Assembly (NCBI GenBank): GCA_913061265.1
Contig: CAJXVS010000008.1
Location: 62,001-126,000, forward strand
From: an uncultured Halobacteriovorax sp.
Lineage (GTDB): Bacteria > Bdellovibrionota > Bacteriovoracia > Bacteriovoracales > Bacteriovoracaceae
Direction: 5' to 3'
Length of the DNA: 64,000 nucleotides
This document shows positions 3,734 to 25,992 of the stretch, piece by piece (position 1 is the first letter of the stretch; every line of letters begins with the position of its first letter). Position numbers and translations under genes: made by a program. The notes under the pieces were generated by a model, which saw only the letters and a program-made list of their open reading frames with translations, did no database searches and was not told where the DNA came from.

Positions 3734-3810
3734 CAGATACTTAGCTCACTACTTGAATTAAACCTCCCCTTGAAGTATTAACTAGTCCATAAACTCTCTC
3801 TGGTACTAGA

Positions 3811-4581: not shown

Positions 4582-4584
4582 GTA

Positions 4585-5196: not shown

Positions 5197-5329
5197 GATT
5201 GATCCTATCAATAGGTTTATATATCCTTATACTGACAGATTCCGGGCCCTTTAGAGAAAAAGGGGCCTTAGTAGATAGTTATTATATGTAAAAACTCTAG
5301 ACAGAGCTTATAGATTTTAGAGACTTAAC

Positions 5330-6595: not shown

Positions 6596-6596
6596 A

Positions 6597-6617
6597 GGGC
6601 CCTTCTAGCAAGGACCC
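6597..6617 (-). promoter_or_regulatory. Hairpin covering the ribosome binding site of the kinase-like gene
   Basis: In the minus-strand transcript GGGUCC pairs with GGGCCC across a 9-nt loop. The 3' arm overlaps the GGG of the GAAGGGCCC Shine-Dalgarno just before the ATG at 6595. It could modulate translation; this is seen from complementarity only. Confidence 0.3.
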
Positions 6618-6644
6618 TGAAAATGAGCTAGAGAGTTGTAATTA

Positions 6645-7799
6645 TTACTGTAAACCTAGCTCTTTTTGAACAATATCATGACGGCGTATGCTTAGGTGAG
6701 AATAGGGCCTTATACGCTCTGGAAGGCCTGTTTTATCGACTTTTTGCCCATTCGTAAGATATGCGTCGAAGCTCACTTTGCCGGTGTCTAAATCGATCTC
6801 AACCTGCCCGTAGCCTCTTGGAGACCTGGACCTTGTTCTTTGATCTAAGTAGCGGTTCCCATGACCTAAGCATGGCATTGAGAGCACGTTTAACGAATCC
6901 TCGAGGGCCTCGTTATTATGATGAACAACTCCCGGGTAATAAGCATGAGAGTGCCCAAAGATGGCGAGGCTAATATCCCCTTCTTTAAAGATCTGCTCTA
7001 AAGAATTTGTTCTTTTGCCTTGTTGCTCATTGGCCATGATCTCGTAGTACTTTCCTCGTCCGCTGCTTGAGTGCTTAGACTTTGAAAGAACCGGGTACAT
7101 TGGCACATGCCCAAAGGCGATCCTTGCTACTGCCCCTCTTGCTTGAGGAGTTTTAAGTTGGTTTGCAATCCAATCTCGTTGAGTCACCCCATTAACTGAT
7201 CTATCTCTTAATGAATAAGTTCTTACGTCATCCATAGAAATAAAGAAGACGTTCTTATAAAGAAAGGAATAATAAAAGGGATAGGCCTCACTAGAGATCA
7301 TAGTAACCCCGGGAATCCTAGGGCTCCAAAACGTTTTATAATAACCACGCTCTCGTTCAATATTGGCATCATGATTTCCCGGGCTAGGGGCGAAGGGAAT
7401 ACCAGAATTTAAGATCGGGTTAAGGATCTTTTGCTCAAAAGAAGTCCACATCTGATCAAAGCGAGATGCGGGAAACCTCTTTTTATAATCTTCACCACTG
7501 GTGAAATCGCCGGTTCCTAAAATAAGATCATAACCAGAATTTAAAATATGCCCCATTCCAGATGTTACGCTACTGGCGTAATTTGGGTCGCCGAGGGATC
7601 CATTCAGATCTCCTAGGACACCAATCTTAAGAAGGCCTTTAACACCTTCCACTGGTGGCGTGGAGTCGCCGGGGTTTGGAGCTGGTCTCACAATAGGTGG
7701 AGCTCCGTCAGTTGGACTGTCTTCTGCCGTATCTTCTTCCTGAGTTTCTTGGCAGCCTAATAATAAAAGTAAAAGCATAAAGCTAAGTGTGTAACGCAT
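6645..7799 (-). CDS. Lipoprotein metallophosphoesterase (calcineurin-like)
   Basis: The 384-residue protein has a lipoprotein signal, MRYTLSFMLLLLLLGC with Cys16 as lipidation site, and a Pro/Asp-rich linker. Metal-binding motifs follow: GVLGDLNGS, LGTGDFTSG, SPGNHDANIER, IAFGHVPMYP and FGHSHAYYPG, the order GD - GD - GNHD - GH - GHxH of calcineurin-like phosphoesterases. The second residue of the first motif (DLN rather than DxH) resembles purple acid-phosphatase-type members. It is probably an outer-membrane-anchored phosphatase or phosphodiesterase. A TATAAT box at 7853-7858 could serve as promoter. Confidence 0.85.
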   Translation of the reverse strand: MRYTLSFMLLLLLLGCQETQEEDTAEDSPTDGAPPIVRPAPNPGDSTPPVEGVKGLLKIGVLGDLNGSLGDPNYASSVTSGMGHILNSGYDLILGTGDFTSGEDYKKRFPASRFDQMWTSFEQKILNPILNSGIPFAPSPGNHDANIERERGYYKTFWSPRIPGVTMISSEAYPFYYSFLYKNVFFISMDDVRTYSLRDRSVNGVTQRDWIANQLKTPQARGAVARIAFGHVPMYPVLSKSKHSSSGRGKYYEIMANEQQGKRTNSLEQIFKEGDISLAIFGHSHAYYPGVVHHNNEALEDSLNVLSMPCLGHGNRYLDQRTRSRSPRGYGQVEIDLDTGKVSFDAYLTNGQKVDKTGLPERIRPYSHLSIRRHDIVQKELGLQ

Positions 7800-7852
7800 A
7801 TTTCATCCTTGAAGTTTACGTTGTGGCGTTTTTTGTTTTCGCCTTCTTAACT

Positions 7853-7858
7853 ATTATA
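7853..7858 (-). promoter_or_regulatory. Candidate -10 box for the metallophosphoesterase gene
   Basis: The minus strand reads TATAAT 53 bases before the ATG at 7799. No convincing -35 was found. The leader between them can form a GGCG...CGCC hairpin. Confidence 0.35.
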
Positions 7859-8031
7859 CCGCGAATTGATTTAGCCTTGGGAACCCTGTAACAAAAAGTT
7901 AACTTAAAAATGACATAAGTAACCGAGATAACGCTGCGAGAAAGGCATCTAAGCTGTCTAAACTTAAGACAGCGTCCGTAGTTTTTACAATGAAGTCCCT
8001 TAAAAAAGCGATTCGTTTTAAGCTATTAGTG

Positions 8032-9609
8032 ATGAAGAAATTGACCTTAATTCTAATGACTTTTGTCCTAAGTACTGCATCCTTTGCCGGTGGCCTAAGC
8101 CCCCGTGAAGTGATCTTTAAAACTGACCGTCAGGTCTACTCTTTATCTGAGGAAAAAGACCCTATAGAGAAGGCCAATAAATTAAGAAGAATCCTTAATA
8201 GCTTTACCCGCTTCATCGTTGAAAAAGGTATAAGTTATGAAAAAAAATTAAAATCAGGTAAGCCACTCTCAGGATCTGAACTTGAAGTCCTTTATAGATT
8301 TGTTCCTACTTATAGAAATATTCTTATTCAGGCTCAAATTGATTTAAAGCCTCTTAGTGAAGTTGGTACTGTAGAGGAGAGGCTTCTTTATCTTCATAAT
8401 CATTTAAAGCTTCTTCAAAGTTTAAAAACAATTCATAAGGCCTACTTTAGACCGGGAATTATGCGCGCTCAAATGCATAATGCTTTTAAGAAAGCAGAGC
8501 AAGGCTCTGTTAAACGTGACGAGCTATTAGATCTTCTTCATAAAGTTACCAGTAAAGAAAATCAAAGAGCTCTTAAGTATCTTTATAAAGAATTCTATTT
8601 AAACGGATCATCAAACTCAGAAGGCACTGACAGGCTTCATCAGTTAATCAGCGTCAATTCTCTTTCAAAGAATTTTGAAGAGGCTAAGTTTATCAATATT
8701 TGGACATACACCTTTTATGATAAGCTCGGACAATTAGGAACTGAGTTTGAGTATCTTTTGAGTAAGGGCTTTGGAAATGTTCTAGGAGAAGTAAAGTTTA
8801 GAAAGGGCTTTCTTCATAAGAACACTGAGGCCCTTCATGAGTTTAAAAGGAAGCTCATGCCTCTTGATATCATCATCGAGAGAAGTCCTTTTGCGCTAAC
8901 TGATATGACGATTCCAGGGCATTGGACTCACCCAGCGATTTGGCTAGGTACAGAAAAGCAACTTAAGAGCTTAGGTCTATGGGAACATCCTATCTTTAAA
9001 CCTTATCAAAAGATGATTAGCGCCGGAAGAAATGTCCTTGAGGCCCTGCGCCCAGGAGTTCAGATCAATCCACTTTCAAGTTATTTCAATACTGATGAAA
9101 TCCTCCTTATGCGAGTTCCGAATGTTTTAAAAGACAGACAAAGAACGCTCGCCGTATACGAAAGGGCCCTTGGTCATTATGGACAAGCTTATGACTTTAA
9201 CTTTGATTCTTCTTCAACGGATGTCATCGTTTGTAGTGAACTTATCTTTCAGGCTTTTGGGAATATCAATTGGCCAACAGATACTGTCCTAGGTCGCCAT
9301 ACAGTGACACCTGACAATATTGCTGAACTCATCTTTTATAAAGACAGCCCTGTTGATTTTGTCACCATCTTTGGAGTTAACCAGAGAAAGTCTATGTACG
9401 AATTAGATAAAGATGATGTGGCGGGATTCATGGGCTTTAGCTTAGATAAAGAAAAAAGCCTGATAGAAGATCAGGCCATCTATAAAAAGTCTGTTACGAA
9501 GTGTGATATTAAAACTTCTAGAGTTCGCGTCGGAAGCAGAAGAATGAAATCACTTCAGATCAACGACTGTGATGAAGTCCTTATCCCCGCCGTCTATACC
9601 GGGAACTAA
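8032..9609 (+). CDS. Exported YiiX-like (permuted NlpC/P60) hydrolase
   Basis: The protein has about 525 residues from ATG 8032 with a signal peptide (KKLTLILMTFVLSTASFAG). An ATG at 7990 would add 14 charged residues before the signal, and a TACAAT box overlaps 7990, so 8032 is preferred. The catalytic half is C-terminal: MTIPGHWTHPAIWLG supplies the His and DVIVCSELIFQAF the Cys. This His-before-Cys order is that of the circularly permuted papain fold of YiiX/YebB. The N-terminal 300 residues are helical and unassigned. It is likely a periplasmic or secreted amidase/peptidase acting on lipid or peptidoglycan-linked bonds. Confidence 0.65.
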   Translation: MKKLTLILMTFVLSTASFAGGLSPREVIFKTDRQVYSLSEEKDPIEKANKLRRILNSFTRFIVEKGISYEKKLKSGKPLSGSELEVLYRFVPTYRNILIQAQIDLKPLSEVGTVEERLLYLHNHLKLLQSLKTIHKAYFRPGIMRAQMHNAFKKAEQGSVKRDELLDLLHKVTSKENQRALKYLYKEFYLNGSSNSEGTDRLHQLISVNSLSKNFEEAKFINIWTYTFYDKLGQLGTEFEYLLSKGFGNVLGEVKFRKGFLHKNTEALHEFKRKLMPLDIIIERSPFALTDMTIPGHWTHPAIWLGTEKQLKSLGLWEHPIFKPYQKMISAGRNVLEALRPGVQINPLSSYFNTDEILLMRVPNVLKDRQRTLAVYERALGHYGQAYDFNFDSSSTDVIVCSELIFQAFGNINWPTDTVLGRHTVTPDNIAELIFYKDSPVDFVTIFGVNQRKSMYELDKDDVAGFMGFSLDKEKSLIEDQAIYKKSVTKCDIKTSRVRVGSRRMKSLQINDCDEVLIPAVYTGN

Positions 9610-10268
9610 GAATCAAACTTGTGAATACTGCTTACAATTCCATCATGAAGCAAGACAAAGTAGTTATCATAAACAAAGGTCTCACGATTTCCCGTTTTAT
9701 CAATAGACTTATCAAAGACTCGAAGTGGAGCTCCCCAACAAATCTTTAAATAATCAACCGGCATCCCAACAGCTAGCTTTCCTTTTTTAAGAACATGCCA
9801 GTACTTAGAATAAGTTCTCTTTGAAAAAGGATTCTTTTTAACAAAGGCTTTCGTTAAACGTCTTTTCAAGAAGTCATTATTAAAGAGGATTCTTTTATCA
9901 TAACTAGTAACGACTAACTTTAAATTTGAGACGAAGCTCTTATTCTTTTGTCTTGCCTTAAACTTAAAGACAATATTCCCCTTACAAGTGGTCTTTCTCT
10001 TTAATGAATACCAGGCCCCTACTCTATGAAGAGTACAGTCGAAGTTTTTAACTTCAACATTTTTTAAAAGAGCTCGCTCTGTTCTTTTAAAGCCAGACTC
10101 TTCAGCAAATCGCCCAGCGTACCATTTGCTGCCTAATAAAGGAGCAGCTTGGTTACCTATGGCCATATTAGTTAGGGATTCTAATCGATTCTTAATCTTT
10201 GGGGTGACTGACACCTGGTTGTTACAACCTACCATCAGCAATATCAGACTCATCCATAAAACTCTCAT
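9606..10268 (-). CDS. Lipoprotein with BamE/SmpA-like C-terminus
   Basis: The 220-residue protein has a lipoprotein leader MRVLWMSLILLMVGCNN (Cys15). The last 60 residues contain KLAVGMPVDYLKICWGAP, then RETFVYDNYFVLLHDGIV and SIHKF, which follow the 'G-M-x3-V-x3-W-G-x-P ... Y ... G-x-V' pattern of BamE/SmpA/OmlA domains. The first 150 residues are basic and unassigned. It converges with the YiiX-like gene, overlapping by four bases. A role in outer-membrane assembly cannot be claimed, as this fold is used by many lipoproteins. Confidence 0.5.
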   Translation of the reverse strand: MRVLWMSLILLMVGCNNQVSVTPKIKNRLESLTNMAIGNQAAPLLGSKWYAGRFAEESGFKRTERALLKNVEVKNFDCTLHRVGAWYSLKRKTTCKGNIVFKFKARQKNKSFVSNLKLVVTSYDKRILFNNDFLKRRLTKAFVKKNPFSKRTYSKYWHVLKKGKLAVGMPVDYLKICWGAPLRVFDKSIDKTGNRETFVYDNYFVLLHDGIVSSIHKFDS

Positions 10269-10380
10269 TCACTTACCTCCTGTAAGCTGAGCCCAAGGCT
10301 CTTTCACTTCTCTTATAGAGCAAGGAAGATGCCAAGAATTTCTACGGAATATTAGGAATTTATCTAAGGATTTTACGCCC

Positions 10381-10413
10381 TGGTGCCTTTTAGGCGTCAA
10401 CGCCTTGGCACCA
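10381..10413. repeat. Nested palindrome (stem within a stem)
   Basis: An outer inverted repeat, TGGTGCC / GGCACCA, encloses a second one, AGGCGT / ACGCCT. It lies five bases beyond the stop of the 168-aa membrane protein and is followed by TTTT on the plus strand. It may act as a terminator, but the poly-U is on the side away from that gene. Confidence 0.5.
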
Positions 10414-10417
10414 TTTT

Positions 10418-10924
10418 CTAGTTAGCTTCGCTCAATTGTCGCCAATCAAACTGAGTCACTGTCCCGCCGTCTTCTCCAACAAAGGCCACTCCAGCCACTG
10501 ATTTATGAATAGGTAGTTCTACATTCTTCTTTTTATGACTTAATTTTACGACATCTTCTTTAACCATTCTCAACATCTTAGAGTCTGAGAATGTTTGTTT
10601 TGGCGCTTTTTCTTCTTCACGTTTTTGGAACCAATCAAACTGTGCACTAAGGGTTTGCCCTAAGATGAGAACCGAAAAGATAATGGCGATTCCCATAAGT
10701 TCTGGAACCATTACTGAGCCAACTCCTAAACATATAGTAAAGAAGATGGCGTGATTGATTGAAATAGGCTCTTTAGAAGGAAGAGGCTTTGATTGCTTCT
10801 TAGCTTGCTCCGCTACTCTTTTATACTGGGCCATAGCATGAGCTTTTTCTCTACGAATCTGAATCTCGCGCCTTTTAATTTGGATAGCGTTCGCATTCTT
10901 TTTTACTTCTAGTTGTTGATTCAT
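10418..10924 (-). CDS. Membrane protein of unknown function
   Basis: The 168-residue protein begins with a charged helical segment (residues 1-50, many Lys, Arg, Glu and Gln) that could form a coiled coil. One long or two short membrane segments follow (about 55-90, AIFFTICLGVGSVMVPELMG then IAIIFSVLILGQTL). The C-terminal tail ends FVGEDGGTVTQFDWRQL. There is no signal peptide, and a clear GGGAG Shine-Dalgarno precedes the ATG. I do not recognise the family. Confidence 0.55.
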   Translation of the reverse strand: MNQQLEVKKNANAIQIKRREIQIRREKAHAMAQYKRVAEQAKKQSKPLPSKEPISINHAIFFTICLGVGSVMVPELMGIAIIFSVLILGQTLSAQFDWFQKREEEKAPKQTFSDSKMLRMVKEDVVKLSHKKKNVELPIHKSVAGVAFVGEDGGTVTQFDWRQLSEAN

Positions 10925-11140
10925 GATTTTCTCCCTTAATCCTACTTCTCTTATTACAAGTTAGGTGCCAATAATTAATGAGGAAATACAATGACTTACA
11001 ACGGTGCTTCGTGAAAAAATTATATGGCCGTCTAAAAACTATACAGATTAACCGAGAATAACGCTCAAGTCCTAAATCCTATACATTTACTGGAGCAAAT
11101 TGCTAGAATTTTTAGTTCATTTACATAAACATGGAAGATT

Positions 11141-11776
11141 ATGTCTACGATTGCAGCAGCAGGAAAGAAATTGGCCATTTGGTCTTACACAATGATGTCA
11201 CTGGTTCAAGTAAGTGCCATTGGCGGCGCCGCCGCCAAGTGGGCCCATTACTGGGGCGCTAATAGCTCGAAGATCATCACTCTAACAACGATCAACACCA
11301 CCATGACTTTTGGGACTGAATTTGTCAGTCGTTCTATTTTATCAAGCAGCCTAACGACTAATAAGAGTTATCGTTTTATCGTGGGAGAAGGACCTTGGTA
11401 TAATAATATCAACCGTCAATCTCTCATCAATATATGGATGACTTTCTTCGCCTCACTTTTAGGCGCCCCGGTTTACTTTTTTCGCCGCCGCCATGCCCGT
11501 TTTTTATTCTTCGTAGGTTTCGGCGTTTTTAATTCGGCCCTTAGTCAGGGACTTCTTGGAGTCCTTCGCGAAGGTGTCATTCTTATCAGCGCAAAAAGGC
11601 TACTTTTTGATTTTTTCTATAACGGTAGTTTGAAATTTTTTATGTTCGAATTTTACCGCAAACCTATTAAGGCCAAGACTAAGTTCTTCAGCCTTTACTG
11701 GGTTCGAGGCAAACAAGATTTACTAACAGGTGTATTTAAAAACCTTATTTTAAACCTTTTAAAGTTTAAAGGATAA
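11141..11776 (+). CDS. Polytopic membrane protein upstream of the exported AAA+ gene
   Basis: The 211-residue protein has several hydrophobic stretches (about 15-35, 105-125, 128-150 and 155-170) separated by basic loops such as FFRRRHARFLF. The C-terminus is Lys-rich and likely cytoplasmic. GGAAG precedes the ATG. It lies 15 bases before the AAA+ gene and is probably co-transcribed with it, so it may be the membrane partner of that protein. No family recognised. Confidence 0.55.
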   Translation: MSTIAAAGKKLAIWSYTMMSLVQVSAIGGAAAKWAHYWGANSSKIITLTTINTTMTFGTEFVSRSILSSSLTTNKSYRFIVGEGPWYNNINRQSLINIWMTFFASLLGAPVYFFRRRHARFLFFVGFGVFNSALSQGLLGVLREGVILISAKRLLFDFFYNGSLKFFMFEFYRKPIKAKTKFFSLYWVRGKQDLLTGVFKNLILNLLKFKG

Positions 11777-11791
11777 CAACAGGAGATAAAG

Positions 11792-14005
11792 ATGAAGTTA
11801 TTATTGATTCCATTTCTGATGCTCGCCCTTTCTTTTAATGCTTTCGCTGACAGTCGCCCTGACTTCAGAAAGCTTTCAGAGATCGCGCGTGTCATTCACT
11901 CAGAAGACGCAGCCTTCCCTACTGATAAGGGTTGGGAAAAAATCACAGGTTTAATGAACAACCTCGACATCTTTGACGAATCAGTTAAAAGAATGATGAG
12001 CACTCTTTGTTCTGATGAGCCAAACAAGTCAGTACTAGTTGTTGGTGAGCCAAGTGATACTTTTAAGTATATGTATGCCCGCCTTGCCATGATGGGACCT
12101 GAGGAAGGATGTAAGCGTCTTTCACATATGGACCTAAAGATCGCAAAGCTGCAGGGTTATATGTACGTAGGGACGACTGAGAGAAACTGGCGTGATTTTA
12201 TTGAGAAGCCAGCTTATAACAAAGACGTTGTTCTTTATATCAACAACCTCGCTCTACTTATCGGTATCGGAACTTCAATGAACCGCGATGTAGGGATTGA
12301 ATCAACTTATATCAATGCTGTTAAGACAGGGAAACTTAAGACTGTAGCCTTCCTTAATAAGTATGATTACAAAAGATTAGTTCACGGAAGACATGCTTAT
12401 GTTCTTAATGGTTTCCAAGAAACAATCAATGTCGATGATCTAAAGATGGCGCAAGTTGATAAGCTTGTAAGGTCTTACCTAACACTTAATGCTCCTCATA
12501 TTAAGATGAGTGATAAAGTGGCCAACTTTATGTACAGAAATATTCAGTACTACCAGCCAAACATCATGGAACCACAAAGAACTATGAATGTTGTTTTATC
12601 ATTGATCCGTCAGAACCCAATGAAGAGAACTCTTTTCAGAACTGAGATCAAGTCTAAGAATCCTTATGGCTCTAATGCTAAAGAAGAGATCATTATTGAT
12701 CGCCCTGATGCCAGCGCGATTCAGTTAAGCTTTGAATACTTTCAAACAGAAAAAGGAAGAGACCGTCTTAGAATCTATGACTTTCATACAAACACTCACC
12801 TTCAAGATCTAACTGGAAAATTAGGTAAGATCAAATCACAGTCTTTTGATACGAATAAGCTTCGTATGGAGTTTCTTACTGACGGATCTGTTGTAGATAA
12901 GGGATTCAAGATTGATGGTATCCTAGAGCAAAAGCTTGCGGACATCACATTAACAATTACTCAAGTACGTCAGGCCATTATGGAAATGGTTCAAGTACCA
13001 GAGTGGATTATTAAAAGAGACTACACAGTAGTTCGTGATCTTCCAGGCATGCTTGATGGTGATGTTGTCGGTATTCATATGGCGAAAAAAGCAGTGATCA
13101 AGGCCTTTAAGGTTGGTTATGTTGCAGGTCGTACAGATGAAAAACCAGCTGGTGCTCTTCTTCTTGTAGGACCTACAGGAACAGGTAAGTCTTATATAGC
13201 TAAGAAAGCCGCAGAGTTCATGGACATGAAGATCATCGTTCTTGATATGACTCAATACGCGACAGCAGAATCTTTTGATAGATTCCTCGATACCGTAGCT
13301 AACAATCTTATCCTCTACCCATATGCTGTTTATCTTTTTGAAGAAATCGACAAGGCCGATACTCGTGTTCTTGATAGACTTTTCTTTATGATGGACGAAG
13401 GGATCTTTTACGATAAGAACCAAAGACCACTCTTTGCTCGTGGCTCTATGGTGATGATGACAACTAACGCTGGTCACGACTTAATAGTACGAGAAAGAAA
13501 CAACCCTGATCTTCAAAGACTTGTTAACCTAGAACTACAAAAGTTCTACCGTCCAAGTTTTCTAAATCGTTTTGATTCTATTCCCATCTTTCTTCCTTTT
13601 TCAAAAGCTGAATTTCATCAACTAGCAACTATTATGACGATGAAAAAAGTTAAGAAAATGAAAGAGTACTTTGATTGGAATGCTACTGTTGCCCCTGAAG
13701 TTATCAAGTTTATGGGAGAGAACGGTGGATCAGATCTTTATGGGGCTCGTCCTATGGAAAGAATGGTTGAGAACGTTATCTCTGTTGGTATCTCTGAGTA
13801 TCAAATCAATAGAGGAACTATCGAATTTGGTGATAGCTTTGTTATCTCAAAGGTTCGTGGTGAGAAACTTAAGTTTAAGATCTCTGTTAACGGTCGTGGC
13901 GGTATGGACTACGAAGTTGATATGGATAATAACTCAGGTCTTATTGATCTATCGCTATTGTTCCCAGAAGTTTCAAAACTTTTTAACGACATCAGAATGT
14001 ACTAA
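11792..14005 (+). CDS. ClpB/ClpA-like AAA+ ATPase with N-terminal signal peptide and degenerate first ATPase domain
   Basis: The protein has 737 residues. Residues 1-19 (MKLLLIPFLMLALSFNAFA) look like a cleavable signal peptide. The first AAA domain is recognisable by alignment with ClpB D1, but Walker A is GEPSDTFK (85-92) instead of GEPGxGKT and Walker B is LYINNLALLIG instead of FIDExHxLxG, so it should not hydrolyse ATP. The second is intact: GPTGTGKS (460-467), Walker B LFEEID (515-520), sensor TTNAG, arginine finger FLNRFD and sensor-2 GARPMER. AGGAGAT precedes the start. A Clp-type unfoldase sent across the membrane is unexpected, since the periplasm lacks ATP. Confidence 0.8.
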   Translation: MKLLLIPFLMLALSFNAFADSRPDFRKLSEIARVIHSEDAAFPTDKGWEKITGLMNNLDIFDESVKRMMSTLCSDEPNKSVLVVGEPSDTFKYMYARLAMMGPEEGCKRLSHMDLKIAKLQGYMYVGTTERNWRDFIEKPAYNKDVVLYINNLALLIGIGTSMNRDVGIESTYINAVKTGKLKTVAFLNKYDYKRLVHGRHAYVLNGFQETINVDDLKMAQVDKLVRSYLTLNAPHIKMSDKVANFMYRNIQYYQPNIMEPQRTMNVVLSLIRQNPMKRTLFRTEIKSKNPYGSNAKEEIIIDRPDASAIQLSFEYFQTEKGRDRLRIYDFHTNTHLQDLTGKLGKIKSQSFDTNKLRMEFLTDGSVVDKGFKIDGILEQKLADITLTITQVRQAIMEMVQVPEWIIKRDYTVVRDLPGMLDGDVVGIHMAKKAVIKAFKVGYVAGRTDEKPAGALLLVGPTGTGKSYIAKKAAEFMDMKIIVLDMTQYATAESFDRFLDTVANNLILYPYAVYLFEEIDKADTRVLDRLFFMMDEGIFYDKNQRPLFARGSMVMMTTNAGHDLIVRERNNPDLQRLVNLELQKFYRPSFLNRFDSIPIFLPFSKAEFHQLATIMTMKKVKKMKEYFDWNATVAPEVIKFMGENGGSDLYGARPMERMVENVISVGISEYQINRGTIEFGDSFVISKVRGEKLKFKISVNGRGGMDYEVDMDNNSGLIDLSLLFPEVSKLFNDIRMY

Positions 14006-14015
14006 TATAAAGAAA

Positions 14016-14041
14016 GGCCCTCTTAATGAGGGTCTTTTTTT
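14016..14041 (+). terminator. Rho-independent terminator of the AAA+ operon
   Basis: A 7-bp stem (GGCCCTC / GAGGGTC, one G-U pair) with a 5-nt loop is followed by seven T. It starts 11 bases after the stop codon. Confidence 0.88.
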
Positions 14042-14082
14042 CCCATACAATTTAGGAATATACGCAGCTAATAATACTATGG

Positions 14083-14116
14083 TATAATAGTTCTATTAGC
14101 CCCATCCCATGGGGCT
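14083..14116 (+). promoter_or_regulatory. TATAAT box and leader hairpin before the 225-aa exported protein
   Basis: TATAAT is at 14083-14088, preceded by TGG (TGGTATAAT, close to an extended -10). A perfect 8-bp hairpin, AGCCCCAT / ATGGGGCT with a 3-nt loop, is at 14098-14116 in the predicted leader. The start codon at 14144 has GGAGGG before it. Confidence 0.5.
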
Positions 14117-18186: not shown

Positions 18187-19281
18187 ATGAAACACATTAT
18201 CTTGGCACTTTTACTTATCTTTTCAATATCTTCAAATGCCTCTGAAAACACAGCTTATTTAGATGCTCCTTATAAAAATCTTGTTCATCCTATTGAGAGT
18301 AAGTCTAATTTTAAAAGCCTAAGCAAGTCTGACTTTCTAGAAATGCAAGCAATCATGACTCCTATCAAATCTCAAGGGAGCCGTGGAACTTGTTCGATCT
18401 TTAGCGCCATCGCTATGCTCGAATCTATGCTTCTTATGAACTATAACTTTGATAAAGAGACACTTGATCTCTCTGAAGAATGGCTTGAATACCTCATCAT
18501 GAGAAACAGAAACTCTGATGGATCAAACTCATGGTCAAACTTTAATGCTATTAGAAAGTATGGAACACCTTCGGAGTCTACCTTAAATTATATAGGTCAA
18601 ACTTGGGAAGAGAGTTTCTTAAACCCACTAGCGACAGAAAGATGTGGTGATTTAGTTGGTGGACTTAAAACTTCATGCCTTTTAGGTCATAGAAACCCAA
18701 GACTTCTAAACGCAAGTAATGAGCAACTTCTTGAAGAAGGAAGCTCACTCTACGATCCAGAATTCCTAGAGGCTAGATCTGAAGCCTTTCAGTTTCGTGA
18801 TAGCTATATCAATTTCTCTAGCACTAACTATACGGTTTATTATACTGCGGACGTGAAGAGATACCTCTCTAAAGGCTACCCTCTAACTCTTGGTATCGAA
18901 TTCTTTTACGGAGCTTGGAATCATAATAAGGCGACTGAATTTGGAATTGGAAGAGAGACCACTAACTGGAATCAGGGAATCGTAGGTTACCCTGAAAGAA
19001 ATTCAGTTGATTATAAGGTTTCAAAAGAAAATGGTGCTGGTCACTCAATCCTTATTGTTGGTTATGACGATGATAAGATCGTAACGACAAATATTAAGAT
19101 GCAAGATGGAAGCACTAAGACTTTTACCTATAAGGGTGTTTACTATTTTAAGAACAGCTGGGGTAAGGGCGGTTTTGGTCGTGACTTTGAAATCAAAGGT
19201 GAAAACTTTGATGGCTATGGCATGATCACTCAAAAGCATGCTCATGAGCATGGTTCATTTTATAGAATGCCTCTCAGATAA
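18187..19281 (+). CDS. Exported C1 papain-family cysteine peptidase
   Basis: The 364-residue protein has a signal peptide (1-18, ending SNA). The catalytic set is complete: Gln63 and Cys69 in KSQGSRGTCSIFSAIAMLE, His286 in GAGHSILIVGYDDD and Asn323 in YYFKNSWGKGGFG. The order and spacing are those of C1 peptidases. There is no recognisable inhibitory propeptide beyond about 35 residues. It is monocistronic with an AGGAGAG ribosome site and a following hairpin. It is likely secreted or periplasmic and used in protein degradation, for example of prey. Confidence 0.88.
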   Translation: MKHIILALLLIFSISSNASENTAYLDAPYKNLVHPIESKSNFKSLSKSDFLEMQAIMTPIKSQGSRGTCSIFSAIAMLESMLLMNYNFDKETLDLSEEWLEYLIMRNRNSDGSNSWSNFNAIRKYGTPSESTLNYIGQTWEESFLNPLATERCGDLVGGLKTSCLLGHRNPRLLNASNEQLLEEGSSLYDPEFLEARSEAFQFRDSYINFSSTNYTVYYTADVKRYLSKGYPLTLGIEFFYGAWNHNKATEFGIGRETTNWNQGIVGYPERNSVDYKVSKENGAGHSILIVGYDDDKIVTTNIKMQDGSTKTFTYKGVYYFKNSWGKGGFGRDFEIKGENFDGYGMITQKHAHEHGSFYRMPLR

Positions 19282-19298
19282 CGAGAGTTTTCAATACC

Positions 19299-19323
19299 AG
19301 CGTGATCACCTAGTGATCACGCT
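19299..19323 (+). terminator. Perfect hairpin after the papain-like peptidase gene
   Basis: An 11-bp perfect inverted repeat, AGCGTGATCAC / GTGATCACGCT with a 3-nt loop, is followed by TTAAATC. The U-tract is short, but the position 17 bases after the stop fits a terminator. Confidence 0.7.
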
Positions 19324-19439
19324 TTAAATCCCCTCTCCATTCCCGACTATACGCCTCAGCATTATTCTTTTTTTAAGACGAATTCTTATTAATTAACTAT
19401 CATTTAGAGATTCAAAATTTAATCTTTAGCGAGGTATCA

Positions 19440-20762
19440 ATGAGTGATTCGACCAAGGATGAGGGTAAGCTTGACCGCACCCTAGGGCCCTTTATGTTAT
19501 GGGGTCTTGGTGTTGGGTACGTTATTAGTGGAATGTACTTTGGTTGGAACTTAGGTCTTCCTGAAGGCGGAACTCTAGGCCTTGCCATTGCCACCTTCTT
19601 TATCATCATCATGTATGTCTGTTTTACTTTTAGCTACACGGAACTTGCCTGCGCTATACCTAAGGCCGGTGGTGCTTTTGAGTACTCAAGGCGTGCCTTT
19701 GGTAATCAATGGGGCTTCTTAGGTGGGATGGCCCAAAATATCGAATTCATCTTTGCCCCACCTGCTATTGCCTTCGCTATTGGAGCCTATCTCAATATTC
19801 ATATGCCAAGCATTCCGGTAAACACTATCGCCATCGTTAGTTTTATCCTCTTCACAGGGATCAATATTCTAGGTGTCCGAATAGCGGCCATGTTTGAATT
19901 AGTGATAACCATTATAGCCGTTGTTGAACTCTTGATCTTCGCCGGCGTTGCCCTGCCACACTTTGAAGCGGCCAATCTTGCTAAGAACTCTTTTCCAAAT
20001 GGTTGGGAAGGTGTCTTTCGCGCTATTCCTTTTGCTATCTGGTTCTTCCTCGCCATTGAAGGCGTCGCAAACGTTGCTGAAGAAACTGTAAACCCACAAA
20101 GAAATGTTCTTATTGGTTTTGGCTCGGCTATTCTTACTCTCGTTATCCTTTGCCTTCTCACCTTTACTTCTGCCATTGGCGTCGCAGGCTGGGAATCCAT
20201 TGTTTACGAAGCCGGCAGCACTCAGGCCTCAGACTCTCCTCTTCCATTGGCCATCAAGGCCATCGCTGGAGGAAGTGATTTTCTTTATCATCTTATTGTT
20301 TGGGTAGGACTCTTTGGTCTAGTCGCCTCTTTTCATGGAATTATTTTAGCTTCAGGCCGCGCCACTTTTGAATTTGGTAGAGTTGGTTTTGCACCTAAGA
20401 TCTTTGGTTCAACTCATTCTAAGTTTAAGACTCCGGCCGTCGCACTCTTATTTAATATGACCATAGGAATAATTGCTGTTCTCACTGATAGAACGGGAGA
20501 TATTATCACCTTGGCCTGCTTTGGAGCGCTTAGCCTTTATATCATTTCCATGTGCGCTTTCTTTAGATTAAGAGTTGATGAACCAGATTTAGAAAGACCC
20601 TTTAAGGTCTTTGCCTATCCTCTAGTTCCGGCCTTAGCGCTTTTAATTGCCAGCGTTTCTATCGTGGCCATGAGTTACTACAATCAAGGTTTGGCCCTTC
20701 TGTTTTTTGGGATCATGTTTGCTTCAAGTTTAATCTTCACCTGCTTTCATAAGGAAAAATAA
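19440..20762 (+). CDS. Ethanolamine permease-like APC transporter
   Basis: The 440-residue protein has about twelve membrane helices. It carries motifs typical of the bacterial ethanolamine permease branch of the APC superfamily: GVGYVISGMYFGWNLGL near the N-terminus, YTELACAIPKAGGAFEYSRR, IEFIFAPPAIAFAIGAYL and AIEGVANVAEETVNP. It heads a five-gene operon whose other products fit gamma-glutamylated amine degradation. The stop codon and next start share one base. GAGG precedes the ATG. An alternative substrate would be another small amino alcohol. Confidence 0.8.
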   Translation: MSDSTKDEGKLDRTLGPFMLWGLGVGYVISGMYFGWNLGLPEGGTLGLAIATFFIIIMYVCFTFSYTELACAIPKAGGAFEYSRRAFGNQWGFLGGMAQNIEFIFAPPAIAFAIGAYLNIHMPSIPVNTIAIVSFILFTGINILGVRIAAMFELVITIIAVVELLIFAGVALPHFEAANLAKNSFPNGWEGVFRAIPFAIWFFLAIEGVANVAEETVNPQRNVLIGFGSAILTLVILCLLTFTSAIGVAGWESIVYEAGSTQASDSPLPLAIKAIAGGSDFLYHLIVWVGLFGLVASFHGIILASGRATFEFGRVGFAPKIFGSTHSKFKTPAVALLFNMTIGIIAVLTDRTGDIITLACFGALSLYIISMCAFFRLRVDEPDLERPFKVFAYPLVPALALLIASVSIVAMSYYNQGLALLFFGIMFASSLIFTCFHKEK

Positions 20763-22105
20763 TGCAACTAACAAAAGAAGAAATCATAGCTAAAGTTAAA
20801 AGTTTTGGCGGAAATAAAGTAAAGCTGGCCGTCACTGATATAGATGGCATCCTTCGCGGTAAGGTCATTCATGTCGATAAATTCCTCTCTGTTCTTGAGG
20901 GCGGCTTTGGCTTTTGCAGCGTCATCTTTGGTTGGGATAGTGCGGACGCTTCTTATGATAATACGGACTATACAGGCTGGCATACAGGTTACCCTGACGC
21001 GAACGCCAAGATTGATCTTAATACCTTTAGAGAAGTGCCATGGGACGAAGAGATTCCTTTTTTCCTAGCAGACTTTGATGGGCTTCATGTTTGTCCTAGA
21101 AGCCTGCTTAAAAAAGTTAGGCAAAAGTCCTTAGACATGGGCTTCTCTCCTATCTTTGCTCAAGAATTTGAGTGGTTTAACTTTGAAGAGAATTCAAATG
21201 ATCTCAACGATGCGGATTTTCAATCACCTAATCCAATGACTAGAGGAATGTTTGGTTATTCAATTCTAAGATCAACTCAAAGAAAAGAATTCTTTAACGA
21301 TCTTTTTGATCTTATGGAAGACTTTAGAGTCACTATAGAAGGCCTGCATACTGAAACAGGACCTGGGGTCTATGAAGCGGCTATTTTATATCAAGACATC
21401 TTAGAAGCTGCTGATAGGGCCGTCTTATTTAAGGCCTCAGCAAAAGAGATCGGTCATCATCATGGGGTGATTCCGACGTTTATGGCAAAGTTCAATGAAA
21501 AACTTCCGGGTTGCTCAGGACATATTCATCAAAGCCTCTGGAAGGATGGAGTAAATGTTTTCTTTGATGAAAAAGCAAAGAATAAGATGAGTTCAACCAT
21601 GGAGAGCTATCTAGCAGGACTTTTATTAGGTCTCCCTGAGATTCTTCCCATGTACGCTCCCACTATGAATAGTTATAAGCGTCTTGTTGAGGGAATGTGG
21701 GCACCTACCACTGTGACTTGGGGGATTGATAATAGAACAACCGCCATTCGTGTTCTTCCTGGCTCTAATAAATCAACTCGCATAGAGATGAGAGTCCCGG
21801 GCTCTGATGCTAATCCTTACTTGGCCCAAGCCGCTTCCCTAGCTTGTGGTCTCTACGGAATCGAAAACAATCTAAAACTAACGAGGGCTCCCTGCACAGG
21901 AAATGGTTACGCTGATAAATCCAACGGCGTCCTTCCCGCTAATCTTTGGGAGGCCAATGAAAGGATGAGAAACTCAAAGCTCGCCAATGAAATTTTAGGC
22001 GAAGAGTTTGTAAAACATTTTTCTCAAACAAGAGAATGGGAATGGAAAGAGGCGGCTAAGGTCGTCACTGATTGGGAACTCAAAAGATATTTTGAAATCA
22101 TCTAG
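20762..22105 (+). CDS. Glutamine synthetase-like gamma-glutamylamide ligase (probable gamma-glutamylethanolamide synthetase)
   Basis: The 447-residue protein has a glutamine-synthetase fold: VTDIDGILRGKVI in the beta-grasp domain, then GLHTETGPGVYEAAILY, metal and ATP site GCSGHIHQSLWKDG, NSYKRLVEGMWAPTTVTWG and ATP-binding NRTTAIRVLPG/RIEMRVPGSDANPYL. It is shorter and more diverged than GlnA-I and lacks the adenylylation-site tail. Members such as PuuA, IpuC and Streptomyces GlnA4 ligate glutamate to amines. The neighbours (ethanolamine-type permease, alcohol and aldehyde dehydrogenases, gamma-glutamyl hydrolase) suggest ethanolamine as the amine. Ligase class is certain; substrate is inferred. 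Confidence 0.8.
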   Translation: MQLTKEEIIAKVKSFGGNKVKLAVTDIDGILRGKVIHVDKFLSVLEGGFGFCSVIFGWDSADASYDNTDYTGWHTGYPDANAKIDLNTFREVPWDEEIPFFLADFDGLHVCPRSLLKKVRQKSLDMGFSPIFAQEFEWFNFEENSNDLNDADFQSPNPMTRGMFGYSILRSTQRKEFFNDLFDLMEDFRVTIEGLHTETGPGVYEAAILYQDILEAADRAVLFKASAKEIGHHHGVIPTFMAKFNEKLPGCSGHIHQSLWKDGVNVFFDEKAKNKMSSTMESYLAGLLLGLPEILPMYAPTMNSYKRLVEGMWAPTTVTWGIDNRTTAIRVLPGSNKSTRIEMRVPGSDANPYLAQAASLACGLYGIENNLKLTRAPCTGNGYADKSNGVLPANLWEANERMRNSKLANEILGEEFVKHFSQTREWEWKEAAKVVTDWELKRYFEII

Positions 22106-22114
22106 GTAATATTT

Positions 22115-23275
22115 ATGAACTTTGAACAACGCTATACTTATAACTACCCTTGCCCTATTCGTTTTGGTCCAGGGGTTATTGACGAAGTTGGGCCTCACTT
22201 AAGAGAACAAGGCCTTAAGCGCGCTCTTATTGTCACTGACCCGGGCTTTATAAAACTTCCTCTTTATGAATCAATCATAAGTGAACTGACAAAATCTGGC
22301 CTTACATGCCTAAGTTTTTCAGACATTGATAAGAACCCTGTTAAGAAGAATGTTCTTGCAGGAGTCTCAAGCTTTCACGATCAAAAAGCAGATTGTATAG
22401 TAGGCCTTGGTGGCGGCGCTAGTATGGACGTGGCTCGAGCGGTTGCCTTAAAGGCCTATCACGAGCGAGATCTCTTTGATTTTGACGACGCTTTAGGTGG
22501 GGACAAGTATGTAACGAACGAGGTTCCCTACTTTATAACCATTCCAACAACTAGTGGAACCGGATCCGAAGTAGGCCGCTCCACTGTTATCTCTGAGGAT
22601 GAATCTCATCAAAAAAGAGTCCTCTTCTCTCCTAGGCTTATGGCAAAGATCGTCTTCGCCGACCCTGCTTTAACCATGGAATTACCAAAGTCAGTCACTG
22701 CGGCTACGGGCATGGACGCATTAACTCATAATATTGAAGCCTACCTCTCAAAAGGTTTTTCCCCCCTTTGTGATGGCGTGGCCATTGAAGGCATTAAGCT
22801 TGTTCATGAATCTCTCATCAAGGCCGCTACTAATCCTTGTCTTGAATCAAGATCAAAGATGCAGATGGCAGCTCTTATGGGGGCCACTAGTTTTCAAAAA
22901 GGCTTAGGCGTTGTTCATAGCACCGCCCACCCTCTTTCAACTGTCTTTGACACTCACCATGGTCTCGCTAATGCGGTCATGCTTCCTTATGGCGTAAAGT
23001 TTAACGAAGAAGTCTCAAAAGAGAGGATTGAATTTCTCTGTCGAGTTCTAGATCTTGGCGAGACCAGTACGAAGAGTTTTATAGACTGGATTATTGATCT
23101 TAATAAGTCTCTTGGGCTTCCTTTAAATCTTACAGAGCTTGGAGTTGATCCTTCAAAGATGGACTCTCTATGCGACCTTGCTTTAAAAGATGTTTGTCAT
23201 CTTTGTAACCCTAGAGAAGTAAGTCTAAGTGATTTTAAAAATATTTACACTAACGCTTTTGAAGGTACCCTTTGA
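22115..23275 (+). CDS. Iron-containing (group III) alcohol dehydrogenase
   Basis: The 386-residue protein is a typical group III ADH. The NAD-binding part has RFGPGVIDEVG and GLGGGASMDVARAVAL, then TIPTTSGTGSEVGRSTVIS. The metal-binding helices contain ATGMDALTHNIEAYLS, GVVHSTAHPL and DTHHGLANAVMLPY, which carry the Asp/His iron ligands. It lies nine bases after the ligase gene. In the proposed pathway it oxidises gamma-glutamylethanolamide to the aldehyde. An alcohol dehydrogenase in place of a PuuB-type amine oxidase is the main reason to favour an amino alcohol over putrescine. Confidence 0.88.
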   Translation: MNFEQRYTYNYPCPIRFGPGVIDEVGPHLREQGLKRALIVTDPGFIKLPLYESIISELTKSGLTCLSFSDIDKNPVKKNVLAGVSSFHDQKADCIVGLGGGASMDVARAVALKAYHERDLFDFDDALGGDKYVTNEVPYFITIPTTSGTGSEVGRSTVISEDESHQKRVLFSPRLMAKIVFADPALTMELPKSVTAATGMDALTHNIEAYLSKGFSPLCDGVAIEGIKLVHESLIKAATNPCLESRSKMQMAALMGATSFQKGLGVVHSTAHPLSTVFDTHHGLANAVMLPYGVKFNEEVSKERIEFLCRVLDLGETSTKSFIDWIIDLNKSLGLPLNLTELGVDPSKMDSLCDLALKDVCHLCNPREVSLSDFKNIYTNAFEGTL

Positions 23276-24018
23276 TAAAGATCGCTCTCACTCCCTGTTT
23301 TATGTACAAAGACCCAAGCCGAATCGTTTTCGGTCATAAGAGTTTAACCTATATGGAAAACGATATGGTTCGCTACCTAGCCAGAGAAGGAGTCATGCCT
23401 TATCTCCTTCCTGATCTTGAAGATAAACTTCTTCAGGCCTACTTAGAAGAAGCAGATGCCTTTGTGATTCAAGGGGGCGTTGACCTTAGTCCTGAAAGTT
23501 ATAATGAACCTTTTTTAAATATCGAGAAATGGCCCGGTGATAAGTACCGTGATGAATTTGAGTTAAAAGTTATTGATTATGCCTTTAAAGCAAAGAAGCC
23601 CATCTATGGCATTTGCCGTGGCTTCCAAGTTCTTAATGCTTACTTTGGAGGAACTCTCCATCAGGATATTCAAACAGAACTTGATACAAAAGTCGCCCAT
23701 AGAGACCCAGACCTTTACGATAAAGTGAATCATAAGATCACTCTTGAAAGTAATGGCCTTCTAAAAGCTCTTTATAAAGAAGAGGTCTTAAATGTTAATT
23801 CAGTTCATCATCAGGCCGTCAAAAAGCTTGGAGATAAACTTATAACAGATGCTAAAAGTCAGGACGACGGGATCATTGAAGCCTTTCATTATGATGGGGA
23901 TCAAGTAGTGATCGGCGTTCAATGGCACCCAGAGTTTTCCCATAGCCTTGGCGACAAGGTTTGTGACCCTAATGTGATCTATAATTACTTCTTAAAAGAA
24001 GTGGAGAAATTAAAATGA
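23272..24018 (+). CDS. Class I amidotransferase-like gamma-glutamyl hydrolase (PuuD/peptidase C26 type)
   Basis: The 248-residue protein has the nucleophile elbow YGICRGFQVLNAYFGG with Cys115 and the His219/Glu221 pair in VQWHPEF. This is the peptidase C26 arrangement shared with PuuD, which cleaves gamma-glutamyl-GABA. An early IQGGVDLSPESY is typical of this family. The start is TTG, overlapping the dehydrogenase stop as TTGA, with AAGG at proper distance. In context it would release glutamate and glycine from gamma-glutamylglycine, the last step of the route. Confidence 0.85.
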   Translation: MIKIALTPCFMYKDPSRIVFGHKSLTYMENDMVRYLAREGVMPYLLPDLEDKLLQAYLEEADAFVIQGGVDLSPESYNEPFLNIEKWPGDKYRDEFELKVIDYAFKAKKPIYGICRGFQVLNAYFGGTLHQDIQTELDTKVAHRDPDLYDKVNHKITLESNGLLKALYKEEVLNVNSVHHQAVKKLGDKLITDAKSQDDGIIEAFHYDGDQVVIGVQWHPEFSHSLGDKVCDPNVIYNYFLKEVEKLK

Positions 24019-25391
24019 GTTTAAAGATTATTAACCCGGCCACTGAAGAGCTGATTAAAGAAGTACCTACAGATACCAAAGATACCTTAAAGCATAAGTT
24101 TGATTCCTTAAGAGCGGCTCTTCCCGCTTGGAAGAAAACAAGCGTTAGAGATAGAATCCTCATGATGAGTAAGTTCGCTGATCTTCTTAGAGAAAACAAA
24201 GATAGGCTTGCTCAAATTTTAAGTGATGAGATGGGTAAACCACTAAACGAGGCCCTTGGAGAGATTAAGGCCTCAGCTGTTAAGACACAATTTTTCTTAC
24301 AAGAAAGTGAAAAGCATCTTAGAAAAGAAAAAGTGAATCACGATGGCTCTACTGAAGAGTATATTGCTTATGAACCTTTAGGAGTTATAGCCAATATTTC
24401 TGCCTGGAACTACCCCTACTTAGTGGGGGTGAACATCTTTGTTCCAGCTTTAATCTGCGGGAACGCTGTCTTTTATAAACCAAGTGAGTTCTCAACTCTT
24501 ACTGGGATTGAAATTGAAAAGCTTCTTATTGAAGCAGGCTTTCCTTCAAGCATTTTTCAATTGGCCATTGGTGCTAAGGAAGTAGGACAGGCCTTATTAG
24601 AGCTTCCTCTCGATGGATATTTCTTTACAGGCTCTTACGCCACAGGAAAACATATAGCCACGACAGTAGCGCCAAAATTAGTTCCTGTTGGTCTTGAACT
24701 AGGAGGAAAGGATCCTCTTTATGTAACAGATCAGGTCATCTCACTAAAAGAGACGGCCGAGTCTGCTCTTAGTGGCGCCTTTTATAATAATGGTCAGAGC
24801 TGCTGCTCAGTGGAGAGAATCTACGTCCATGAGAAAGTATATGATGAATTCTTAGGTCACTTTCTTGAAGCCGCTTCGAAGTTAAAGGTAGGAAATCCTA
24901 ATGAGAAAGGGATCACTCAAGGGGCCATCAGCCGCTTCGAGCATTTAAATTACTTACAAAACCAAGTCACAGACGCTACTTCTAAAGGGGCTAAACTTGA
25001 ATTAGGCGGGAAGATTATCAAGGGACCAGGTTATTTCTTTGAACCCACAGTTCTTACTAACGTGAATCATCAAATGGATGTCATGAAAGAAGAAAGCTTC
25101 GGGCCTATTATTGGTATTCAAAAAGTGGTTAACGACGAAGAGGCCATCAAGCTTATGAATGATACAGACTATGGTCTTACGGCCAGCGTTTATACTTCTA
25201 AGCGAAATAGAGGCGAAGAGATAATGGAGCAGATTGACGCTGGCACATGCTATTTAAATTGCTGTGATAGGGTCTCAGGTTATACGCCATGGTCAGGAAG
25301 AAAGAACTCAGGACTTGGAATGACTTTAAGCTTTCACGGGATCTTTACTTTTGTAAAACCAAAAGCGCTTCATTTAAGACAACAACATTAA
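24015..25391 (+). CDS. Aldehyde dehydrogenase
   Basis: The 458-residue protein is an NAD(P)-dependent aldehyde dehydrogenase. The general base is Glu228 in LELGGKDPLYV, the catalytic Cys263 in NNGQSCCSVERIY, and the conserved AWNYP and FGPI motifs are present. It overlaps the hydrolase gene as ATGA and closes the operon. In the proposed path it converts the gamma-glutamylated aldehyde to gamma-glutamylglycine. It resembles succinate-semialdehyde/PuuC-like enzymes in length. The 3' end overlaps the convergent 107-aa gene by four bases. Confidence 0.9.
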   Translation: MSLKIINPATEELIKEVPTDTKDTLKHKFDSLRAALPAWKKTSVRDRILMMSKFADLLRENKDRLAQILSDEMGKPLNEALGEIKASAVKTQFFLQESEKHLRKEKVNHDGSTEEYIAYEPLGVIANISAWNYPYLVGVNIFVPALICGNAVFYKPSEFSTLTGIEIEKLLIEAGFPSSIFQLAIGAKEVGQALLELPLDGYFFTGSYATGKHIATTVAPKLVPVGLELGGKDPLYVTDQVISLKETAESALSGAFYNNGQSCCSVERIYVHEKVYDEFLGHFLEAASKLKVGNPNEKGITQGAISRFEHLNYLQNQVTDATSKGAKLELGGKIIKGPGYFFEPTVLTNVNHQMDVMKEESFGPIIGIQKVVNDEEAIKLMNDTDYGLTASVYTSKRNRGEEIMEQIDAGTCYLNCCDRVSGYTPWSGRKNSGLGMTLSFHGIFTFVKPKALHLRQQH

Positions 25392-25708
25392 TGAGGAAGA
25401 TAGTTAACCCAGATATTAAAAAGTATGTCTCGGTTAAAGCTTAGAACATCTGAGTGATTGAGAACGCAATCGATCTCTCGAAGGACTGCTTTTCTATCTC
25501 CTCTAAAGCTAAACTTATCAAGGGCCGTATGATCTGTCGGTCCTTGAAGCCAAACATCAAAGCCTGTGACTTCAATATTTTCTTCTAAACACCAATCGAT
25601 AAAAAGCTTTGAAGTATCAGGTCTTAAGGCGAACTCTGACCCATCAGGAGAGAGCACTGCCTCTCCTGCAAAGTTATTTGGTAAGGGAGCGTTACTAAAG
25701 ACTTTCAT
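25388..25708 (-). CDS. Conserved-looking cytoplasmic protein of unknown function
   Basis: The 106-residue protein has no signal peptide or membrane segment. Start ATG 25708 forms TAATG with the stop of the upstream gene and has GGAAGAAAG before it, so it is coupled to that gene. Visible features are a mixed sequence with LRPDTSKLFIDWCLEE and FDVWLQGPTDH. No family recognised. It overlaps the aldehyde dehydrogenase stop by four bases in convergent orientation. Confidence 0.55.
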   Translation of the reverse strand: MKVFSNAPLPNNFAGEAVLSPDGSEFALRPDTSKLFIDWCLEENIEVTGFDVWLQGPTDHTALDKFSFRGDRKAVLREIDCVLNHSDVLSFNRDILFNIWVNYLPH

Positions 25709-25992
25709 TAATCTTTCTTCCCGCACTTACCACCTAACTTATCTAAGGGAGAACAATAGTCCTCTCTTTTTTCAACTTTTTTAGAAACGTCTTTTAATTT
25801 TTTTTGAGTCTTATCAACAATCTTCTTGTCGGTTTCATCATCAGCGGTCTCACACTTCTTCATCATCTTATCAAGAGGAGAGCAATAGCCTTTTCTTTTC
25901 TCAATTCTTTTCGACGCTTTTTGAAAATCAGTTTTTTGGCCCTCAGCGAAAGCTGAAGTGCAAAATAATAAGATAAGACATAGTAACTTCAT
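25708..25992 (-). CDS. Small exported protein with duplicated YCSPLDK unit
   Basis: The protein has about 94 residues from ATG 25992, which has GGAGAAT before it. The signal peptide is MKLLCLILLFCTSAFA. The mature peptide contains the same unit twice: KRIEKRKGYCSPLDKMMKKC and KKVEKREDYCSPLDKLGGKC, each with two Cys about ten residues apart, probably forming disulfides. The spacer is acidic. I do not recognise the family; the repeat suggests a small two-module periplasmic or secreted protein. Confidence 0.6.
   Translation of the reverse strand: MKLLCLILLFCTSAFAEGQKTDFQKASKRIEKRKGYCSPLDKMMKKCETADDETDKKIVDKTQKKLKDVSKKVEKREDYCSPLDKLGGKCGKKD

What the first reader, a model, noticed from the sequence alone, without database searches (positions are those of the whole stretch)
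19440..25391. Complete gamma-glutamylation operon for ethanolamine-type amino alcohols
Five tightly coupled genes (one-base overlap, nine-base gap, TTGA and ATGA overlaps) encode an ethanolamine-type permease, glutamine-synthetase-like ligase, iron alcohol dehydrogenase, PuuD-like hydrolase and aldehyde dehydrogenase. Known parallels are the Puu route for putrescine, IpuC for isopropylamine, and GlnA4 of Streptomyces for ethanolamine. The combination predicts: ethanolamine to gamma-glutamylethanolamide, to gamma-glutamyl-aminoacetaldehyde, to gamma-glutamylglycine, to glycine plus glutamate. It would be independent of B12 and of EutBC microcompartments. In a predator that digests prey phosphatidylethanolamine this would be a fitting carbon and nitrogen route.
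Basis: partly seen in the sequence, partly recalled or inferred. Interest (0 to 1): 0.72.

Follow-up and report, generated by a model that had tools for sequence, protein, structure and literature searches.

The report
Glutamate-tagging operon for ethanolamine breakdown
Five tightly packed genes most likely let this Bdellovibrio-like bacterium import ethanolamine (the head group of a common membrane lipid) and turn it into glycine by temporarily attaching glutamate to it; the chemistry is already known from other bacteria, but this gene set and its ligase form a separate, widespread lineage that I found no experiments on.

Summary
In detail: five + strand genes at 19440-25391, overlapping or 9 bases apart, encode an Eat-type permease, a glutamine-synthetase (GS)-like ligase, an iron alcohol dehydrogenase, a Peptidase_C26 (PuuD-like) hydrolase and an aldehyde dehydrogenase. 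The permease passes NCBI's 'ethanolamine permease' cut-off and its relatives sit beside eutB/eutC. The ligase passes no curated GS or PuuA cut-off, has lost the GS flap Glu327 (Trp) and Tyr179 (Phe), and keeps its ATP, Mg and glutamate residues. The genome has no EutB and no microcompartment shell protein, and has a separate type III GS. The exact five-gene order recurs in 45 of the 80 best GS relatives, mostly Bacteroidota. The route is not new: it is reported for Chromohalobacter, Agrobacterium, Phaeobacter and Streptomyces. What differs is the ligase: it lies outside the clade of the Chromohalobacter enzyme (5dm3 taken as Csal_0679) and of Streptomyces-type clusters, with IpuC as the nearest characterised relative. 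Substrate identity therefore rests on permease and operon logic, not ligase orthology. The predator link is weak: only 22 of 129 family genomes have the ligase, and many carriers are free-living Bacteroidota.

The parts
19440..20762 (+). Eat-type APC-superfamily permease, predicted ethanolamine importer
   Evidence: TIGR00908 ethanolamine permease 457.9 bits, cut-off 381.75; 47% identical to Azospirillum Eat, which lies next to eutB-eutC; 39% homologue directly upstream of eutB in two same-family genomes; only over-cut-off copy in the genome
20762..22105 (+). GS-like gamma-glutamyl-amine ligase, predicted ethanolamine gamma-glutamylase
   Evidence: Gln-synt_C domain; below the cut-offs of GlnA, GS III and PuuA models; flap E327->W, Y179->F, N264->P, while catalytic/glutamate residues E129, E131, E212, E220, H269, R321, R339, E357, R359 are kept
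22115..23275 (+). Iron-containing alcohol dehydrogenase, predicted gamma-glutamylethanolamide dehydrogenase
   Evidence: Fe-ADH and ADH_Fe_C domains; NAD motif GGGASMD and conserved Asp/His motifs TGMDALTHN (198-206), VHSTAH (267-272), THHGLA (280-285)
23272..24018 (+). Peptidase_C26 class I amidotransferase-fold hydrolase, predicted gamma-glutamylglycine hydrolase
   Evidence: PF07722 E=7e-52; nucleophile C115 in GICRGFQ and H219/E221 in QWHPEF; best structural relatives lin1909 and PuuD; below the PuuD equivalog cut-off (84.3 of 266)
24015..25391 (+). Aldehyde dehydrogenase, predicted gamma-glutamyl-aminoacetaldehyde dehydrogenase
   Evidence: PF00171 E=4e-128; general base E228 in GLELGGK and Cys263/264 in NGQSCC; passes no equivalog cut-off among the 25 best hits
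19282..19439 (.). Intergenic region in front of the operon; about the last 70 bases conserved with two same-genus genomes, GAGG ribosome-binding-like motif; inverted repeat GCGTGATCAC-CTA-GTGATCACGC followed by TTT just after the upstream gene
   Evidence: Sequence and upstream alignment; no above-chance promoter site; no Rfam family

Best explanation
A B12-independent ethanolamine catabolic operon working by gamma-glutamylation. The Eat-type permease imports ethanolamine. The GS-like ligase joins it to glutamate using ATP, giving gamma-glutamylethanolamide. The Fe-ADH oxidises the free primary alcohol to the aldehyde, which the glutamyl amide keeps from reacting as a free amino-aldehyde. The ALDH oxidises this to gamma-glutamylglycine, and the C26 hydrolase releases glycine and recycles glutamate. 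Shown here: gene content, order, conservation, family assignments, catalytic residues, loss of GS ammonia-site residues, absence of EutB and BMC shell genes, presence of a separate type III GS. Inferred: the substrate and each reaction.
For: Permease passes the curated ethanolamine permease model, and its homologues sit beside eutB/eutC in Azospirillum and beside eutB in two same-family genomes. Fe-ADH plus ALDH fits a primary amino alcohol going to the acid, and no PuuB-like amine oxidase is in the operon. The ligase lacks the E327 and Y179 equivalents but keeps ATP/Mg/glutamate residues, and Trp327/Phe179 hold in all six sampled members of the wider clade. The genome has a GSIII for ammonia, no EutB, no BMC shell, a gcvP-like gene and six GDPD-domain matches. 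The same five genes in the same order occur in 45/80 loci and the four enzymes colinear in 53/80. The same logic is reported for other bacteria: PMC6529630 and PMC10132767, where proteins named ethanolamine gamma-glutamylase, gamma-glutamylethanolamide dehydrogenase, gamma-glutamylacetylaldehydeamide dehydrogenase and gamma-glutamylglycine amidohydrolase are induced.
Against: The ligase is only 35% identical to 5dm3 and groups outside the well supported clade (99/98) of 5dm3 and Streptomyces-type ligases; an IpuC-annotated ligase is closer (40%). Eat-family permeases may carry other amino alcohols: a 36% homologue lies near a BMC locus on pRHL2. I found no biochemical datum for any member of this ligase clade. 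Fourteen of the 80 GS loci showed none of the other four genes; at least L042, L044 and L066 are not just contig ends.
Confidence: 0.75

Rival explanations
1. Same chemistry, different primary amino alcohol (for example 3-aminopropanol to beta-alanine, or L-alaninol to alanine), with ethanolamine at most a side substrate.
For: The ligase lies outside the clade of the characterised ethanolamine ligase and nearer to IpuC; permease relatives occur beside other systems, such as the BMC locus on pRHL2.
Against: The permease scores above the ethanolamine equivalog cut-off and its closest plasmid-borne relative is linked to eutB-eutC; ethanolamine is a far commoner natural amino alcohol (general knowledge).
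Confidence: 0.15
2. A Puu- or Ipu-type pathway for a diamine or alkylamine (putrescine, isopropylamine).
For: GS-like ligase plus C26 hydrolase plus ALDH resembles Puu; 40% identity to IpuC of Paenarthrobacter aurescens.
Against: Far below the gamma-glutamylputrescine synthetase cut-off (199 of 650 bits); no PuuB-like oxidase in the operon; both ipuC loci carry a cytochrome P450 and ferredoxin, absent here; an alcohol dehydrogenase would have no role for a diamine.
Confidence: 0.06
3. The GS-like protein is the cell's ammonia-assimilating glutamine synthetase and its neighbours are incidental.
For: No type I GS passes the cut-off elsewhere in the genome.
Against: A complete 729-aa GSIII is present; the ligase has lost flap E327 and Y179; it is fixed in an operon with four catabolic genes across phyla.
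Confidence: 0.03

Closest known systems
gamma-Glutamylation ethanolamine route of Chromohalobacter salexigens / Phaeobacter sp. MED193 (cited as Vetting et al. in PMC10132767; Gerlt 2016 in PMC6529630)
   Same: Ligase, alcohol dehydrogenase, aldehyde dehydrogenase and gamma-glutamylglycine hydrolase in one cluster with an ethanolamine transporter; a related Paracoccus cluster (L123) also has an Fe-ADH
   Different: TRAP transporter instead of an Eat permease; hydrolase annotated N-formylglutamate amidohydrolase in L123 instead of C26; ligase only 35% identical and in a separate clade
Streptomyces GlnA4 cluster SCO1610-SCO1615 (PMC6529630)
   Same: GS-like gamma-glutamylethanolamide synthetase, aldehyde dehydrogenase, glutamine-amidotransferase-type gene; an ethanolamine/amino acid permease in some species
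   Different: Short-chain dehydrogenase instead of Fe-ADH, own repressor EpuRI; GlnA4 itself was not available here, and an actinobacterial ligase from a similar cluster (L121) is 35% identical and outside the window clade
Legionella lytica plasmid and Photobacterium sp. GJ3 clusters (L034, L039)
   Same: GS-like ligase (46%), ALDH and Fe-ADH adjacent, plus an amidotransferase-type gene ('GMP synthase') in L034 and an Eat homologue in L039
   Different: Different gene order; ALDH about 35% and Fe-ADH about 38% identical; the L034 amidotransferase gave no match to the window C26 protein at E 1e-5; uncharacterised
IpuC (gamma-glutamylisopropylamide synthetase), Paenarthrobacter aurescens TC1
   Same: GS-like amine ligase, Trp at the E327 position, C26-like hydrolase nearby
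   Different: Linked to P450/ferredoxin, no Fe-ADH; 40% identity
EutBC/EutH microcompartment route and short Eat-EutBC operon
   Same: Eat-family permease in the short version
   Different: EutB and BMC shell absent here; no B12-dependent lyase

Membership tests
gamma-Glutamylation ethanolamine pathway | All four enzyme classes (GS-like ligase, alcohol dehydrogenase, aldehyde dehydrogenase, glutamyl-amide hydrolase) in one operon | tested here: met
gamma-Glutamylation ethanolamine pathway | Ethanolamine transporter in the cluster | tested here: met
   TIGR00908 above cut-off; family-level, transport not assayed
Clade of the Chromohalobacter / Streptomyces-type ethanolamine ligases | Ligase falls inside that clade in a tree | tested here: not met
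   Separate clade, 99/98 support for the other clade; 35% identity to 5dm3. 5dm3 = Csal_0679 is from memory. Lowers orthology, not the functional analogy
gamma-Glutamylation ethanolamine pathway | Ligase forms gamma-glutamylethanolamide | not testable with these tools
   Needs enzyme assay
Canonical glutamine synthetase (type I) | Passes the GlnA equivalog and keeps E327 and Y179 (E. coli numbering) | tested here: not met
   228 of 429 bits; W and F at these positions. The Asp50/Ser53 region is not reliably aligned
Puu (putrescine) pathway | PuuA equivalog ligase and PuuB oxidase | tested here: not met
   199 of 650 bits; no FAD oxidase in the operon
Eut (EutBC) pathway | EutB ammonia-lyase and, for the long form, BMC shell proteins in the genome | tested here: not met
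   0 hits for PF06751 and PF00936, E. coli control positive
Eat ethanolamine permease | Passes TIGR00908 | tested here: met
   457.9 against 381.75 bits

The most novel reading that the evidence does not exclude
A distinct, horizontally spread five-gene ethanolamine (or primary amino alcohol) glutamylation operon, common in Bacteroidota and scattered in Bacteriovoracaceae, whose ligase acquired ethanolamine specificity independently of the Chromohalobacter/Streptomyces ligases, from an IpuC-like stock.
Probability: 0.4. Interest if true: 0.5.

Novelty: new variant of a known kind. Interest (0 to 1): 0.35.

Why it matters
If correct, microcompartment-free, B12-free use of ethanolamine extends to many Bacteroidota and to some Bacteriovoracaceae. 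It would give a concrete annotation (ligase, Fe-ADH, C26, ALDH) for genes that sequence models leave unnamed, and a cheap test of whether ethanolamine ligases arose more than once.

Tried and rejected
Promoter/terminator scan: hits no more than shuffles. Rfam: no riboswitch or other family. Type I GS in the genome: none over cut-off, a GSIII instead. Looking for a substitute transporter in relatives that lack the upstream permease (L023, L025-L028): no adjacent gene with an obvious transporter role in the ORF list, not profiled further. Literature on ethanolamine in Bdellovibrio/Bacteriovorax: nothing relevant among the titles and abstracts listed. A test of EutB and GS exclusivity in 59 relatives was not informative: EutB in 3, GS in 14, one genome (G038) with both. 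No structure was predicted, because a model would not decide amine specificity.

Full report
The five ORFs, their order and the four junctions (TAATG, 9-base gap, TTGA, ATGA) are as described. The operon is closed on the right by a convergent ORF at 25388-25726 on the minus strand, and on the left by a 158-base intergenic stretch that is partly conserved with two same-genus genomes.

Families. The permease passes TIGR00908 'ethanolamine permease' (457.9 bits, cut-off 381.75) and is the only gene in the genome to do so. The second gene has the GS catalytic domain but passes no GS or gamma-glutamylputrescine synthetase equivalog. The others are an iron alcohol dehydrogenase, a Peptidase_C26 hydrolase with an intact C115/H219/E221 triad, and an aldehyde dehydrogenase.

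Permease context. Its homologue in Azospirillum (47%) is next to eutB and eutC. In two genomes of the same family a 39% homologue lies directly upstream of eutB. This is the strongest link to ethanolamine, and it does not depend on the ligase. A more distant homologue (36%) lies near a microcompartment locus on Rhodococcus pRHL2, so a different amino alcohol cannot be excluded.

Ligase. Aligned to E. coli GlnA (sequence checked against PDB 7w85), the metal, ATP and glutamate residues are kept, but flap Glu327 is Trp, Tyr179 is Phe and Asn264 is Pro, in all six sampled members of the wider clade. IpuC also has Trp at 327; 5dm3 has Phe. The region around Asp50/Ser53 has an insertion and cannot be aligned with confidence. 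This argues for a larger amine, not ammonia. The genome has a 729-aa type III GS for ammonia.

Conservation. In the Bdellovibrionota relatives with the ligase, ligase-FeADH-C26-ALDH is colinear wherever the contig reaches, except in the most distant (L029), where C26 and ALDH are swapped. The permease is found upstream in seven of the thirteen relatives (one of them cut by the contig end) and not in L023 and L025-L029, of which L029 is cut by the contig end. In 80 loci from other contigs, mostly Bacteroidota (Pedobacter, Chitinophaga, Flavihumibacter, Mucilaginibacter and others), 45 have the exact five-gene order and 8 more have the four enzymes; some of the rest are short contigs. Only 22 of 129 genomes searched in the window's own family have the ligase, so it is accessory. 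The family is probably Bacteriovoracaceae: a same-family genome carries the ligase on a contig of the same length as one titled Bacteriovoracaceae bacterium UBA7317.

Prior knowledge. S. coelicolor GlnA4 makes gamma-glutamylethanolamide, and the later steps were deduced (PMC6529630). Phaeobacter induces a four-enzyme set with these named steps on phosphorylethanolamine, described there as closely related to genes demonstrated to work in Chromohalobacter salexigens and Agrobacterium tumefaciens C58 (PMC10132767). A Paracoccus pantotrophus plasmid cluster has RpiR, N-formylglutamate amidohydrolase, GS-like, ALDH and Fe-ADH genes, the enzyme order reported for Phaeobacter, which makes Fe-ADH a natural candidate for the alcohol step (inference).

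What differs. In a tree of 33 ligases the window clade lies outside the clade of 5dm3 (Csal_0679 by recollection), L123 and two actinobacterial ligases (99/98), and groups with L. lytica/Photobacterium/Rhizobiaceae ligases; IpuC is next, with moderate support (88/84). The ethanolamine assignment therefore rests on permease, enzyme logic and gene order. The alcohol plus aldehyde dehydrogenase pair fits a primary amino alcohol; the Puu and Ipu alternatives lack their hallmark genes here.

Eut absence. EutB and BMC shell domains are absent from the 99.75%-complete genome, with E. coli positive as control. A gcvP-like gene (below the model's cut-off) and six GDPD-domain matches are present, so glycine use and release of head groups are plausible, but untested.

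Verdict. The new element is a separate, widespread ligase/operon lineage. The predator argument is not specific.

Noticed in passing
L123 (Paracoccus pantotrophus plasmid) 6136-14116: An ethanolamine-type glutamylation cluster lies directly in front of bhcBCD of the beta-hydroxyaspartate cycle, which consumes glycine and glyoxylate; suggests a direct coupling of ethanolamine-derived glycine to that cycle.
   Followed up: no
L032 (Rhizobium leguminosarum plasmid) 970-11702; L125 (Robbsia) 813-8356: GS-like ligase and C26 hydrolase in a shared cluster with a gene annotated 2-aminoethylphosphonate transaminase, a PLP-dependent transferase, a desaturase-family gene and a LysE exporter; substrate unclear. 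The two ligases belong to different clades.
   Followed up: no
L042, L044, L066 at 7001-8360: Close relatives of the ligase (62-66%) on long contigs without the other four genes beside them; their role is unexplained.
   Followed up: partly
window 4000-4362: A GDPD-domain (glycerophosphodiester phosphodiesterase) match in the window, a possible upstream step releasing ethanolamine from lipid head groups.
   Followed up: no
window 18187-19281: Secreted cysteine-protease-like gene (by eye, not profiled) just upstream on the same strand, separated from the operon by an inverted repeat (GCGTGATCAC-CTA-GTGATCACGC).
   Followed up: no
G038 (C17:5091-6368 and C5:15011-16351): One relative carries both EutB and the GS-like ligase operon, so the two ethanolamine routes are not strictly exclusive.
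   Followed up: no
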